Below are positions 39,474 through 44,086 of a stretch of 64,000 bases of DNA, piece by piece. The stretch's first letter is position 1, and each line of letters opens with the position of its first letter. The notes beneath the pieces are model-generated. The model made no database searches, was not told the origin of the DNA, and saw only the letters and a program-made list of their open reading frames with translations. Source of the DNA: Sulfolobales archaeon (GTDB lineage: Archaea; Thermoproteota; Thermoprotei_A; Sulfolobales; Desulfurococcaceae). The translations under genes were made by a program, and so were the position numbers. Location: positions 1-64,000 of the forward strand of contig JANXDZ010000002.1 of NCBI GenBank assembly GCA_025059075.1, given 5' to 3'.

Positions 39474-40724
39474 ATGCTAGGTGCATGTGCTTTGAGCGTT
39501 GAACCCAGCGAAAAAGTTGAAGCAAAGTTAAGCCTAGAAGATTACGTTAAAGTCCTTGAGGCTAAGCTAGAACAACTCGTCTTCGAAAATAAATCTCTTG
39601 AGTATAAGTACAACAAGTTGCTTATGGATGTTGAGAAGCTTCAAAGACAAGTAGAGTACTATAAGAGCCAGATTGAGAAATTAATTACTCCACCACTCAT
39701 AGAGGCTACAGTAATAGATGTACTTAAAGATGGAAGAGTTGTTGTAAGGAGTTCCACTGGCCCCAATCTCGTTGTACAAGCGCTGGACTCAATAGATCTA
39801 TCGCTCCTAAGGCCTGGAGCTAGAGTAGCGTTAAATCAAAGAGGATCAGCAATAGTTGAAGCACTGCCTGAATCAGAGGATCCACTAGTTAAAAGCATGG
39901 AGGTTATAGAGAGGCCTAGTGTTAAGTATAGTGATGTAGGTGGTTTAAGTGAGCAAATAATGGAGCTAAGAGAGGTAATTGAGCTACCATTGAAGAAACC
40001 AGACTTATTTAAAGAGATCGGGGTGGAACCTCCTAAAGGCATACTACTTTACGGACCCCCAGGCTGTGGAAAGACTCTCTTAGCAAAGGCTGTTGCCAGT
40101 GAAGCTGAAGCAGCATTCATAAGCATTGTTGGAAGCGAACTTGTTCAAAAGTTCATTGGGGAAGGAGCTAGGATCGTTAGAGAGCTATTTCAATTAGCTA
40201 GAAGAAAAGCCCCAGCAATAGTCTTCATAGATGAAGTGGATTCAATAGCTTCAAGGAGAATAGACATAGGGACTAGTGGTGAAAGAGAAGTGCAAAGGAC
40301 CCTAATGCAATTACTGGCTGAAATAGATGGCTTCAAGCCCCTTGATGGAGTTAAAATAATTGCAGCGACTAATAGAGTTGACATACTTGATCCAGCGATA
40401 TTAAGGCCCGGAAGGCTTGATAGGTTAATAGAAATACCTCCCCCAAACCCCAGTGGAAGAGTAGAAATATTCAAGATACACACTAAGAGAATGAAGCTTG
40501 CAGACGACGTAGATTTAGGAGAACTAGCTAAAGTCACTGAAGGGTTATGTGGAGCTGAAATAAAGGCTATATGTACTGAGGCAGGGTACTTTGCAATAAG
40601 GAGTGGAAGAAGCGTTGTCTCAATGAGTGATTTCATTAATGCAGTGAAAAAGACCTTGGCTAAGAGAGATGTAAGGGGGAGGCCTAAGGAGATAGAACAA
40701 AGCTTGTTAAACGTTTACCAATAG
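39474..40724 (+). CDS. pan: Proteasome-activating nucleotidase (PAN)
   Basis: This 416-aa AAA+ unfoldase feeds the 20S proteasome. It has an N-terminal coiled coil (about 18-68), an OB domain (about 75-125), Walker A GPPGCGKT near residue 195, Walker [10 protein letters not shown] near 249 and sensor ATNR. The C-terminus ends in VYQ, a HbYX motif for opening the proteasome gate. ATG 39474 is followed by about ten extra residues before the coiled coil, so an internal TTG 39492 is a possible start. Confidence 0.93.
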
Positions 40725-40946: not shown

Positions 40947-41234
40947 CTAGTCTGCACTAGACTCAGATTCTTCCTCAGCTAATTCTTCAAGAAGTATTTC
41001 ATAGTATTCTTGAAGCATTTCTCGTTCCTCAGGAGTTATTCCTCCACGAGCTGCTTGAGAGGCTTTAGCAGTTACAACTTTTTTCTCACTGCTGACTTCA
41101 TAGCTTAACTTATACTTGTTTTTATCCTCCACTTCTAACCTCATTTTATAGCCGCACTTCATGCAGACTAAGTACTTCTTTTCATCTTCTTCTCTTGGAA
41201 GCATTATTCCCCCGCACTTAGGGCAAAACTTCAC
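40947..41234 (-). CDS. TFS/RPB9-like N-terminal zinc-ribbon protein, truncated form
   Basis: This 95-aa protein begins MKFCPKCGGIMLPREE and carries LVCMKCGY, two Cys pairs that form the RpoM/TFS N-terminal zinc ribbon. Full-length TFS (about 110 aa) has a second zinc ribbon with the catalytic Asp-Glu that stimulates transcript cleavage. Here the C-terminal half is helical and acidic and has no Cys. It may be a dominant or regulatory TFS paralogue, or an unrelated zinc-ribbon protein. Confidence 0.75.
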   Translation of the reverse strand: MKFCPKCGGIMLPREEDEKKYLVCMKCGYKMRLEVEDKNKYKLSYEVSSEKKVVTAKASQAARGGITPEEREMLQEYYEILLEELAEEESESSAD

Positions 41235-41312
41235 TTCTACTTACCTCCTTAAGCTAGTGTTCTGGAGTGATATGTACTCCCTAATAATGTTTTCCCTCGG
41301 CATATAGAGAGT

Positions 41313-41366
41313 AATTATTTTTAAACCCAGGAGATTCAGAGATGTAGTGAATGACTATAGGTGAGT
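41313..41366 (+). promoter_or_regulatory. TATA box and ribosome-binding site for the Glu/Trp miniprotein
   Basis: TTTTTAAAC (about 41318-41326) is a TATA element 45 nt before the ATG at 41371. GGTGA (41360-41364), the archaeal Shine-Dalgarno core, lies six bases before that ATG. Confidence 0.5.
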
Positions 41367-41370
41367 AAAC

Positions 41371-41451
41371 ATGGTATTACGATATGAGGAAGAAGAGTGG
41401 TGGGAGGAAGAGGAGGAAGAGGAGTGGTGGGAAGAAGAGGAAGAATGGTAG
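41371..41451 (+). CDS. 26-residue Glu/Trp repeat miniprotein
   Basis: ATG 41371 to TAG 41451 encodes 26 residues, of which 16 are Glu and 5 are Trp. After MVLRY come Glu runs of four, seven and five, separated by two Trp-Trp pairs and closed by a final Trp. A TATA box lies 45 nt upstream and a GGTGA ribosome site six bases upstream. The stop is 2 nt from the convergent gene at 41454. The coding strand is almost purely G and A apart from the T of TGG, so a chance low-complexity tract is the main alternative. Function unknown; it could be an amphipathic, strongly acidic peptide. Confidence 0.5.
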   Translation: MVLRYEEEEWWEEEEEEEWWEEEEEW

Positions 41452-41453
41452 TA

Positions 41454-41999
41454 CTATAGCTCCTGTAGGTACACCTTATTGATAGCTGTCAGAAGGTTTT
41501 TTATAAGAACAGCGCGTTCCTCCAGAGACAGTTCTTCACGCTTCCTATATTGGCAGACTGCATACTTTGAGCATATATCGAGAACTCTACTGCTTACTTC
41601 AGCGTAAGAGTCTTGGCTCGTGATTATAATTAAGCTAACTTCACTGCTTAAGTGAGAAGTTAAAAGATCTATGACTTCATTTATTTGCTTTTTTGCGTAA
41701 AGTATTTTGAGGAGGAGTAATGCTGGATTACGTATCTTCTTTACATGCTTCCGCCTCCTTAATGCATAGAGACTAGCTACAATAACTGCCTCTAATGGTG
41801 GCGTAAGGCTTTGCGGAACTAATGCCACTATAGTTGAGTCAGTAACCAAGCTATTTACTTCATTGAGTAACTCACTGAATACAGCATTGGGGAATAGTTT
41901 GCACGACATTATTGAAACAACTATTCTTTCTTCATTTAAGTTAATGAGTGCAGTGCCTGCATTTAGTGAAGAGGAAGCAAGTTTAGGTAAGCTATGCAT
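41454..41999 (-). CDS. Cgi121-like KEOPS subunit (probable)
   Basis: This 181-aa protein shows the Cgi121 pattern: a central PQSLTPPLEAVIVASLYALRR helix, then KKIRNPALLLLKILYAKKQI and NEVIDLL, resembling the family's ALR..I.nP..LLL.lag.rQI.eai segment. Cgi121 binds the tRNA in the KEOPS complex that makes t6A37. The N-terminal strands (ALINLNEERIVVSIM) also fit. Assignment is by pattern recognition and should be confirmed by profile search. It lies 18 nt after eS17 on the same strand. Confidence 0.6.
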   Translation of the reverse strand: MHSLPKLASSSLNAGTALINLNEERIVVSIMSCKLFPNAVFSELLNEVNSLVTDSTIVALVPQSLTPPLEAVIVASLYALRRRKHVKKIRNPALLLLKILYAKKQINEVIDLLTSHLSSEVSLIIITSQDSYAEVSSRVLDICSKYAVCQYRKREELSLEERAVLIKNLLTAINKVYLQEL

Positions 42000-42017: not shown

Positions 42018-42233
42018 TTACTCCTCTACTTGCATAACTACAGATCTCTTAGATAATTTAGCTAGCCTAGCTATATAGCCAGCCACCTTATTTCTAACTC
42101 TCTTTGAGTATGAATCCATTATTTCCTTTAGTACTTCTTTATTATGTTGAAAGTCTTCACTAAATACTTCAGGGTGCTTTGCAAATAAATCCTTCGCAGT
42201 TTTCTTAATTAGCTTTGTCCTAACTTTACCCAT
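42018..42233 (-). CDS. rps17e: Small ribosomal subunit protein eS17
   Basis: This 71-aa protein begins MGKVRTKLIKKTAKDLFAKH and contains FSEDFQHNK and SKRVRNKVAGYIARL, which identify the archaeal/eukaryotic S17e family at its normal length for an archaeon. ATG 42233. The upstream region shares the divergent space with the thermosome gene. Confidence 0.95.
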   Translation of the reverse strand: MGKVRTKLIKKTAKDLFAKHPEVFSEDFQHNKEVLKEIMDSYSKRVRNKVAGYIARLAKLSKRSVVMQVEE

Positions 42234-42310: not shown

Positions 42311-42366
42311 CAATTTATATGAGGGATCGTCGTTAAGATGCTTTATTTTAATGAAAATTTATATAG
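42311..42366 (+). promoter_or_regulatory. Two tandem TATA boxes upstream of the thermosome gene
   Basis: CAATTTATATGAGG (42311-42324) and AAAATTTATATAGAA (42354-42368) are near-repeats, each a TATA candidate about 44 nt apart. The second lies about 55 nt before ATG 42419. Two start sites may allow basal and heat-induced expression. Confidence 0.5.
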
Positions 42367-42418
42367 AACCCCTTCTATGGAGAGTTATGTGGTGAAGTAT
42401 TTACACAGGGTGTTCCAT

Positions 42419-44086
42419 ATGGCGGCCGCTGTTGGAGCTACAGGAGCTACAACTGAGCCTACAGGCATACCTGTATTGATATTAAAGGAGGGTACTCAGA
42501 GAACTGCTGGTAGAGATGCATTAAGGAATAACATAATGGCTGTAAAAGCTATTGCAGAGACTCTTAGGACTACTTATGGCCCTAAAGGTATGGATAAAAT
42601 GCTCGTAGACGCTCTTGGCGACGTGACTATAACTAATGATGGAGCAACAATTCTCGACAAAATGGATGTACAGCACCCAGCTGCAAAAATGCTTGTTCAA
42701 ATAGCTAAGGGCCAGGATGAAGAGGTAGGCGATGGAACTAAGACAGCTGTAATATTTGCTGGAGAACTACTGAGAAATGCTGAGGAACTCTTAGCTAAAG
42801 AAGTTCACCCAACAGTTATTGTAAGTGGCTTCAGGAAGGCCCTTGAGGAAGCCATTAGAGTCATACAAGATCTTTCTGAACAAATAGACATAAGTGATGA
42901 AGAAACACTAAAGAAGGTTGCTGTAACTGCACTTACAAGCAAGGCTGTTCATGGAGCTAGAGAGCACTTTGCAGAAATAGCTGTAAAAGCTATAAGGCAA
43001 GTAGCTGAAGAAAGAGCCGGCAAGTACTATGTAGATCTAGACAATGTCCAGATAATAAAGAAACACGGCGGAAGCCTTCTAGACACTCAGTTAGTTTATG
43101 GCATTGTTCTTGATAAGGAAGTAGTTCATCCAGGTATGCCTAGGAGAGTTGAGAAAGCAAAAATAGCACTACTAGATGCACCACTAGAAGTAGAAAAACC
43201 AGAGATAGATGCCGAGATCAGGATATCTAGCCCTGAGCAAATGAGGGGATTCCTACAGGAAGAAGAGGAAATACTTAAAGGAATGGTTGATAGAATTGCT
43301 AGTGTTGGTGCTAATGTAGTTATATGCCAGAAGGGTATTGATGAAGTAGCACAACACTTCTTAGCTAAAAAAGGAATACTAGCTGTAAGAAGAGTAAAGA
43401 GAAGCGATATGGAGAAACTAGAAAGAGCAACAGGAGGAAGAATAGTTAGCAATATAGATGACTTAAAGCCTGAAGATCTAGGCTATGCTGAACTAGTTGA
43501 AGAAAGAAAGATTGGAGAGGATAAAATGGTATTTGTAGAAGGATGCAGGAACCCAAGGGCAGTGAGCATAGTCATAAGAGGAGGGCTTGAGAGGTTAGTT
43601 GATGAAGCTGAAAGAGCATTTAGGGATGCTCTCTCAGCAGTGGCAGATTCATTAAAGGATGGAAAAGTTGTAATTGGCGGTGGAGCAGTTGAAGTAGAGT
43701 TAGCGAAATACCTTAGAAAGCATGCTAAAACTATTGGTGGAAAGGAGCAGCTTGCAATAGAGTCATTCGCTAAATCACTTGAAGGCTTATCCATAACGCT
43801 TGCTGAAAACGCCGGTCTAGACCCCGTTGAAATACTCATGAAGCTAAGAGCAGCGCATGAAACTGATGTAGGAAAGACTGTTGGTATAAATGTATTCAAC
43901 GGCCAAGTTGAGGATATGAAAGCTCTTGGAGTAATAGAGCCATTGAGCGTGAAAGCTAATGCTATAAAGGCTGGAACTGAAGCAGCAACACTTGTACTAA
44001 GGATAGATGACGTAATAGCTGCCTCAAAGACTGCTAGAGAAGAGAAGGAGAAGGGCGGTAAGAAGGAAGAGAAGGAGGAAGAGTAA
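42419..44086 (+). CDS. Thermosome subunit (group II chaperonin)
   Basis: This 555-aa protein has [11 protein letters not shown] (near residue 48), the nucleotide motif [15 protein letters not shown] (near 97), [10 protein letters not shown], and the [16 protein letters not shown] and [13 protein letters not shown] blocks. It ends in a Lys/Glu-rich tail ([10 protein letters not shown]) rather than a Gly/Met tail. I place the start at ATG 42419 ([16 protein letters not shown]...). The frame is open to an ATG at 42338, but the second TATA box lies downstream of that point. It folds client proteins in a double-ring ATP-driven cage. Confidence 0.93.

What the first reader, a model, noticed from the sequence alone, without database searches (positions are those of the whole stretch)
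41371..41451. 26-aa Glu/Trp repeat miniprotein with its own TATA box and ribosome site
The tiny frame has 16 Glu and 5 Trp of 26 residues, with Trp-Trp pairs spaced nine residues apart and a final Trp. A TATA element (41318-41326) and a GGTGA site six bases before ATG 41371 give it the full signals of a translated gene. It sits in the otherwise empty space between the TFS-like gene and the Cgi121-like gene, with its stop 2 nt from the convergent stop at 41454. The composition would make a highly acidic, aromatic amphipathic peptide that could bind basic proteins or membranes. I know of no described family of this type, but that is from memory.
Basis: partly seen in the sequence, partly recalled or inferred. 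Interest (0 to 1): 0.78.

Follow-up and report, generated by a model that had tools for sequence, protein, structure and literature searches.

The report
Conserved Glu/Trp microprotein, ABCE1-linked, in archaea
A tiny archaeal protein built almost entirely from glutamate and tryptophan, missed because it is so short, proves to be a real gene kept across a whole phylum of archaea, usually beside the gene for the ribosome-recycling ATPase ABCE1, which suggests an unrecognised helper of protein synthesis.

Summary
The 26-codon frame at 41371-41451 (+) belongs to a family of microproteins (mostly 21-45 aa, median 29), 67% Glu and 16% Trp, that I recovered from over 140 genomes of the phylum, mostly by E/W-coding patterns. 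In 24 same-group pairs, nucleotide differences fall 2:0:124 on codon positions 1:2:3 (120 synonymous, 4 non-synonymous codons). This excludes a merely purine-rich tract. 112 of 145 members end in Glu-Trp-COOH. GGTG stands before 69 of 122 ATG starts, against 4.7% of background ATGs.

In about 20 families, in several classes, the gene sits directly upstream of ABCE1 (ribosome recycling), often with TFS between. In the window's own family it has flipped in place between Cgi121 and TFS, so there it must act in trans. No Pfam, NCBIfam, PHROG or PDB match and no paper was found.

The proposed amphipathic/membrane reading is not supported: the Trp are evenly spaced with no helical periodicity. Best guess, inferred: a disordered acidic-aromatic partner of ABCE1 or its ribosomal docking site, working like the eIF3j acidic-Trp motif. 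Binding was not shown.

The parts
41371..41451 (+). Glu/Trp microprotein gene, 26 aa, MVLRYEEEEWWEEEEEEEWWEEEEEW
   Evidence: same-genus copy L016 with only synonymous change after codon 2; family across the phylum; codon-position test
41360..41364 (+). GGTGA ribosome-binding site, 6 nt before the ATG
   Evidence: GGTG within 16 nt upstream of 69 of 122 family ATG starts versus 4.7% of background ATGs
41318..41326 (+). TATA-like TTTTTAAAC; identical in the same-genus genome; TTTAAA is palindromic and could also serve TFS on the - strand
   Evidence: AT-rich TATA-like stretches at a similar distance in other f1 loci, judged by eye. Promoter function not tested
41454..41999 (-). Cgi121-like KEOPS subunit, convergent neighbour
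   Evidence: 12-member alignment: 4 members match Pfam PF08617 (the window copy alone does not); profile matches solved Cgi121 structures at E 1e-6 to 2e-5
40947..41234 (-). Transcription factor S (TFS)-like zinc-ribbon protein, divergent neighbour
   Evidence: Pfam PF02150, E 2e-9
42018..42233 (-). Ribosomal protein S17e, part of the conserved locus
   Evidence: Pfam PF00833, E 5e-16; synteny
42338..44086 (+). Thermosome subunit, part of the conserved locus
   Evidence: Pfam PF00118, E 3e-188; synteny
39474..40724 (+). PAN-like proteasomal AAA ATPase; lies where ABCE1 lies in most other members of the family f1 (in this genome ABCE1 is about 213 kb away)

Best explanation
The frame is a real, unannotated microprotein gene and the first recognised member of a family of ultra-acidic, Trp-studded, probably disordered microproteins of Thermoproteota (shown by sequence; the protein itself has not been detected). 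Its ancestral place is immediately upstream of, and often in one operon with, ABCE1, the ATPase that splits ribosomes, frequently with TFS between (gene order shown; co-transcription inferred from short gaps). Most likely it works in trans (inferred): evenly spaced Trp held exposed by glutamates, with the C-terminal Trp, dock on ABCE1 or on the surface of the 30S subunit that ABCE1 uses, and tune ribosome recycling or re-initiation, much as the acidic N-terminal motif of eukaryotic eIF3j is held by one Trp in a pocket of its partner. In the window's family the gene inverted in place beside Cgi121 but kept its own start signals, as expected for a trans-acting product.
For: Coding: 24 same-group pairs, 2:0:124 differences by codon position, 120 synonymous versus 4 non-synonymous codons; GAA 1721 / GAG 1496 but hardly any Lys or Gly codon. 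Product constraint: E 67%, W 16%, D 1.6%; 112/145 end in EW; even Trp spacing. Context: in 67 of 145 loci the same-strand gene downstream is ABCE1 (most gaps 36-505 nt); a further 17 have it divergent, nearly all in f1; same in distant families f17, f21, f22, f26, f31, f38, f41, f46, f55, f56, f62 and f19, f45, f50. Ten f11 genomes (probably Sulfolobaceae) have a D/E-W version shortly before the ABCE1 open frame (18-79 nt; tenth). Analogy: eIF3j acidic motif held by Trp52 (PMC2824034); reported ABCE1 contacts with eIF3j/b/g (PMC5105147).
Against: No binding, expression or phenotype data. AlphaFold2 of an in-frame read-through microprotein-linker-ABCE1 chain left the microprotein at pLDDT about 30 (such a negative is weak). 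Some lineages keep the microprotein away from ABCE1 (window genome, f4, f6, f24, f25, f37, f39), and many genomes with ABCE1 have none upstream of it. Gene neighbourhood alone does not prove function.
Confidence: 0.4

Rival explanations
1. Cis-acting upstream ORF: translation of the Glu run early in the frame destabilises the ribosome (intrinsic ribosome destabilisation) or stalls it, and so couples ABCE1 expression to ribosome stability; the peptide itself is a by-product.
For: Position just upstream of ABCE1 with short gaps in many families; D/E-rich N-termini abort translation in bacteria and eukaryotes (PMC9718836).
Against: In the window's family the frame is inverted relative to ABCE1 and TFS with no same-strand gene following, yet is equally conserved; in several lineages it lies far from ABCE1. 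Glu (not Asp), regular Trp and the terminal EW need a product-level reason.
Confidence: 0.15
2. Adaptor for iron-sulfur cluster insertion into ABCE1: the C-terminal acidic-Trp-COOH acts as a targeting tail, like the C-terminal Trp of eukaryotic Lto1 that brings Rli1/ABCE1 to the CIA targeting complex.
For: 112/145 end in EW-COOH, 6 in EF; the TCR motif is [LIM]-[DES]-[WF]-COO-, conservation limited to the last two positions, and Lto1 uses its C-terminal Trp for Rli1 (PMC10623007, PMC4523923); ABCE1 carries Fe-S clusters; a Cia2-type DUF59 domain protein exists in the window genome.
Against: The antepenultimate residue is Glu, not L/I/M; the paper finds TCR tails lacking in archaeal homologues of clients; DUF59 is near-universal (13 of 14 controls), so its presence says little; it does not explain the internal Trp; 27 of 145 end otherwise.
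Confidence: 0.12
3. KEOPS accessory: a small partner of Cgi121, helping t6A tRNA modification (loosely like the acidic disordered Gon7, from memory).
For: Next to Cgi121 in families f1, f2, f3, f8, f10, f13, f14, in both orientations; the in-place inversion in f1 kept the adjacency.
Against: Outside this group the gene is mostly next to ABCE1 without Cgi121, and f11 keeps Cgi121 without it nearby but has it before ABCE1. Read-through Cgi121-microprotein model: microprotein pLDDT about 30-40.
Confidence: 0.1
4. General polyanion: a sponge, nucleic-acid mimic or chaperone for basic or aromatic-binding proteins (ribosomal proteins, chromatin proteins, OB-folds), with no special tie to ABCE1.
For: Composition, median net charge -19, evenly spaced aromatics, variable spacing; persistence in lineages where it is unlinked to ABCE1.
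Against: Does not predict the recurrent ABCE1 neighbourhood over about 20 families or the terminal EW.
Confidence: 0.18
5. Not a gene: a purine-rich repeat or DNA/RNA element that happens to be open.
For: Sequence is GA-rich and repetitive.
Against: A purine-only constraint would put A/G changes equally on all codon positions; observed 2:0:124, P = 2e-56. No Rfam match. Start, stop and SD are kept.
Confidence: 0.01

Closest known systems
eIF3j / Hcr1 N-terminal acidic motif (NTA)
   Same: Short acidic stretch centred on Trp that is held in a partner's pocket; eIF3j is a reported ABCE1 contact in eukaryotes (PMC2824034, PMC5105147).
   Different: eIF3j is a full protein with further parts; the archaeal protein is mostly 21-45 aa, nearly pure E/W, and no homology is detectable.
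C-terminal TCR tail of the eukaryotic CIA pathway (Lto1 adaptor of Rli1/ABCE1)
   Same: Acidic residue followed by a C-terminal Trp (or Phe); linked to ABCE1 maturation (PMC10623007, PMC4523923).
   Different: No L/I/M at -3; repeated internal Trp; archaeal targeting complex not demonstrated; no Yae1/Lto1 deca-GX3 motif in these sequences (by inspection).
Acid-rich leader/uORF sequences causing intrinsic ribosome destabilisation
   Same: Glu runs at the very N-terminus of a short ORF, often upstream of a translation gene (PMC9718836).
   Different: Gene is inverted or unlinked in whole families yet conserved as protein; Trp pattern and C-terminus conserved.
trp-type leader peptides with tandem Trp codons (from memory)
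   Same: Short ORF with WW pairs.
   Different: No tryptophan-biosynthesis gene was seen to follow; in the window no gene follows on the same strand before the convergent Cgi121.

Membership tests
eIF3j/Hcr1 | Acidic motif centred on a conserved Trp | tested here: met
   Sequence of all members, compared with the motif described in PMC2824034; resemblance of composition only, no alignment score
eIF3j/Hcr1 | Further domain(s) beyond the acidic motif | tested here: not met
   Whole protein is 26 aa in the window, median 29 in the family; no Pfam match
eIF3j/Hcr1 | Binding to ABCE1, eIF3b or the small subunit | tested here: inconclusive
CIA targeting (TCR) tail | C-terminal [DES]-[WF]-COOH | tested here: met
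   112/145 EW, 6/145 EF
CIA targeting (TCR) tail | L/I/M at position -3 | tested here: not met
   Position -3 is Glu in the window and in nearly all listed members
CIA targeting (TCR) tail | CIA targeting complex present (Cia1, Cia2, Mms19) | tested here: inconclusive
   Only a DUF59/Cia2-type domain found in the genome; Cia1 and Mms19 not searched
Cis-acting leader peptide / uORF | Lies upstream of a regulated gene on the same strand | tested here: not met
   Not met in the window and in family f1; met in many other families
KEOPS subunit | Present and linked wherever KEOPS Cgi121 is | tested here: not met
   f11 Cgi121 loci have no such frame nearby; other classes mostly have it by ABCE1 without Cgi121
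Any curated protein family | HMM or sequence match | tested here: not met
   Pfam, NCBIfam, PHROGs, PDB: no match

The most novel reading that the evidence does not exclude
Thermoproteota carry an ancient, overlooked ribosome-recycling cofactor made essentially of two amino acids, encoded with ABCE1; it is the archaeal functional counterpart of the acidic-Trp ABCE1 partners of eukaryotes (eIF3j motif or Lto1 tail) and shows that a conserved function can be carried by an evenly Trp-spaced polyglutamate with almost no other sequence.
Probability: 0.3. Interest if true: 0.92.

Novelty: categorically new. Interest (0 to 1): 0.82.

Why it matters
A protein family spread over a whole archaeal phylum, very strongly conserved at the codon level, matches no curated family I searched, probably because its members are mostly below 30-35 codons and of low complexity, so gene finders and masked searches skip them (inference). 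Its steady association with ABCE1 makes an open question testable: what assists ABCE1 in archaea, where only five initiation factors were counted, eIF3 not among them (PMC5105147), and for which no ABCE1 adaptor is known to me. Its chemistry (evenly spaced Trp in polyglutamate, terminal Trp) is an extreme natural case of the acidic-aromatic disordered binders known from eukaryotic translation and transcription factors.

Tried and rejected
Purine tract or RNA element: rejected by the codon-position test and the empty Rfam scan. Amphipathic helix: no 100-degree periodicity. KEOPS partner as first idea: weakened once other classes showed ABCE1 without Cgi121. Leader peptide: weakened by the inversion in f1. 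AlphaFold2 of read-through fusions (stop codons read as Gln) to ABCE1 and to Cgi121: microprotein at low confidence in both, uninformative. Curated family, PDB and Rfam searches: nothing. Literature searches: nothing describing such a protein; Kratzat 2021 on ABCE1-43S complexes was not held, so any direct eIF3j-ABCE1 contact described there is from memory. WW pattern in bacteria: of seven hits, three lie inside larger unrelated frames and the others showed no such frame; IMG/VR hits lie mostly in large proteins. An apparent PAN neighbour in family f6 was a cross-match to a Vps4-like AAA protein. Archaeal phyla other than Thermoproteota could not be searched with the loose pattern.

Full report
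Observation. The frame, its composition, the TATA-like element, the GGTGA site and the 2-nt distance to the convergent stop are all as stated. The window lies in a 1.34-Mb archaeal genome (G000, 19 contigs). Its only same-genus relative held (G001) has a 151,661-base contig, the length of a record titled 'uncultured Sulfolobales archaeon', so the source is a member of Sulfolobales in the broad GTDB sense (inference).

Is it a gene? The genus-mate has MMLRYEEEEWWEEEEEEEWWEEEEEW at the same place in an alignment of 86% DNA identity; after codon 2 every difference is a synonymous third-position change. A DNA pattern for EEWWEE hit 93 of 214 genomes of the order, mostly as two hits in one frame, while the reversed control pattern hit 5. 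A looser pattern hit 134 of 229 genomes of the class and 137 of 397 sampled genomes of the phylum, 78 of 171 genera, with no control hit seen. From fetched loci I listed 145 members: median 29 aa, Glu 67%, Trp 16%, Asp 1.6%; GAA and GAG almost equally used. In 24 same-group pairs the differences are 2, 0 and 124 at codon positions 1, 2 and 3, with 120 synonymous and 4 non-synonymous codon changes, P = 2e-56 against equal positions. A purine-tract constraint cannot do this. 69 of 122 ATG starts have GGTG within 16 nt upstream, against 4.7% of other ATGs. The strict WW form scanned over 84,980 species gave 82 stretches, all but seven in this archaeal group; three of the seven bacterial hits lie in larger unrelated frames and the rest showed no such frame. 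Caveat: members were gathered mostly by E/W patterns, so family averages for E and W are biased upward; the C-terminal residue and synonymous ratio are less affected.

Anatomy. A short, often hydrophobic start (for example MVVYF, MKWLIL, MFR), then Glu runs broken by W or WW at spacings of mostly 4 to 9, and a terminal Trp: 112 of 145 end in EW, 6 in EF. Aromatic/aliphatic positions show no helical periodicity (100 degrees, z = 0.1) and are more evenly spread than shuffles (20 degrees, z = -9.5). AlphaFold2 gives the segment pLDDT about 30 to 40. The picture is of a disordered chain with regularly spaced aromatic residues, not an amphipathic helix.

Neighbourhood. In the window: PAN-like(+), TFS(-), microprotein(+), Cgi121(-), S17e(-), thermosome(+). 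In other orders of the class and in families f2, f3, f8 and f10 the order is S17e, MoaD-like and/or PRTase, Cgi121, microprotein, (TFS), ABCE1, all on one strand; in f1 the microprotein alone is inverted, giving ABCE1(-) TFS(-) microprotein(+) Cgi121(-) in most members. In other classes Cgi121 is mostly elsewhere but ABCE1 remains directly downstream. Counting all listed members, 67 have ABCE1 next on the same strand, most gaps 36 to 505 nt, and 17 divergent (the homology search adds a few missed there, such as L275, L276 and L289). Searching from the ABCE1 side found forms that the E-only patterns miss: ten genomes of f11 (probably Sulfolobaceae) with, for example, MEEDWEDIEEEDWEDIEEEDWEEDEW ending 26 nt before the ABCE1 open frame, and forms in f17, f19, f45 and f50. 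Exceptions: the window genome itself (ABCE1 about 213 kb away), f4 (HEAT-repeat gene), f6 (near a MiaB-type radical SAM protein and a Vps4-like AAA), f24 (before S-adenosylmethionine decarboxylase), and f25, f37 and f39. Not found upstream of ABCE1 in f18 and several other families. Family names are numbers given by the tool; taxonomic guesses for them are mine.

Mechanism. Shown: reading-frame conservation, composition, terminal EW, linkage to ABCE1 over roughly 20 families, in-place inversion in f1. Inferred: it acts as a product in trans, because it is equally conserved where it is inverted or unlinked; it serves translation, because the linkage is to the recycling ATPase; it binds through Trp exposed by Glu. 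The nearest working analogy is the eIF3j N-terminal acidic motif, held by Trp52 in a pocket of eIF3b (PMC2824034), eIF3j being one of the eIF3 subunits reported to contact ABCE1 (PMC5105147). A second is the C-terminal [DE]-W tail read by the CIA targeting complex, used by Lto1 to mature Rli1/ABCE1 (PMC10623007, PMC4523923). A third, cis-acting, is ribosome destabilisation by N-terminal Glu runs (PMC9718836), which the inversion argues against. None was demonstrated; AlphaFold2 of read-through fusions was uninformative. A Cia2-type DUF59 protein is present, but this family is near-universal.

Known or new. No match in Pfam, NCBIfam, PHROGs or the PDB, no Rfam match, no description in the papers searched. 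UniProt, nr and AlphaFold DB were not available, so scattered 'hypothetical protein' entries may exist. It fails membership of eIF3j (no further domain) and of canonical TCR tails (no L/I/M at -3), while resembling both in how it might work.

Verdict. Confidence that it is a conserved protein-coding gene is about 0.98; that its function concerns ABCE1 or ribosome recycling, about 0.5; that it is a direct binding partner, about 0.35 to 0.4.

Noticed in passing
L270, L271: A small zinc-finger protein (MPICDICGME...CxxC...CDECG) fused to an acidic-Trp tail that does not end in Trp; only weak Pfam hits to HIT/MYND/B-box fingers.
   Followed up: partly
L260-L267: A distinct variant in one family with a basic start, mostly Pro-containing (MSRRKTPPKEEEE...), before the Glu/Trp part; no ABCE1 in the held flanks.
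   Followed up: no
L207-L218: Longer versions (about 44-59 aa) with F, Y, L beside W, in family f6; in the loci read (e.g. L210, L217) convergent with a MiaB-type radical SAM methylthiotransferase and near a Vps4-like AAA protein.
   Followed up: partly
L277-L280: In f24 the microprotein is a well-conserved form (..EEEEWEEEEELWEEFEEEWEEEEEW); in L278 and L279 the next same-strand gene is S-adenosylmethionine decarboxylase.
   Followed up: partly
L358-L374 (IMG/VR contigs): Very large viral proteins (up to 1687 aa) with acidic-Trp repeat stretches such as ALWEEEEESWEEEESWELDTEEEWDEW; probably unrelated but of similar chemistry.
   Followed up: no
L079, L094 and similar loci: A MoaD/ThiS-like protein ending in Gly-Gly is encoded between S17e and Cgi121 in many relatives, and appears fused in frame to Cgi121 in L079.
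   Followed up: no
window 40947-41260: The TFS frame appears to start with GTG at 41234 behind a strong GGAGGT site on the - strand.
   Followed up: no
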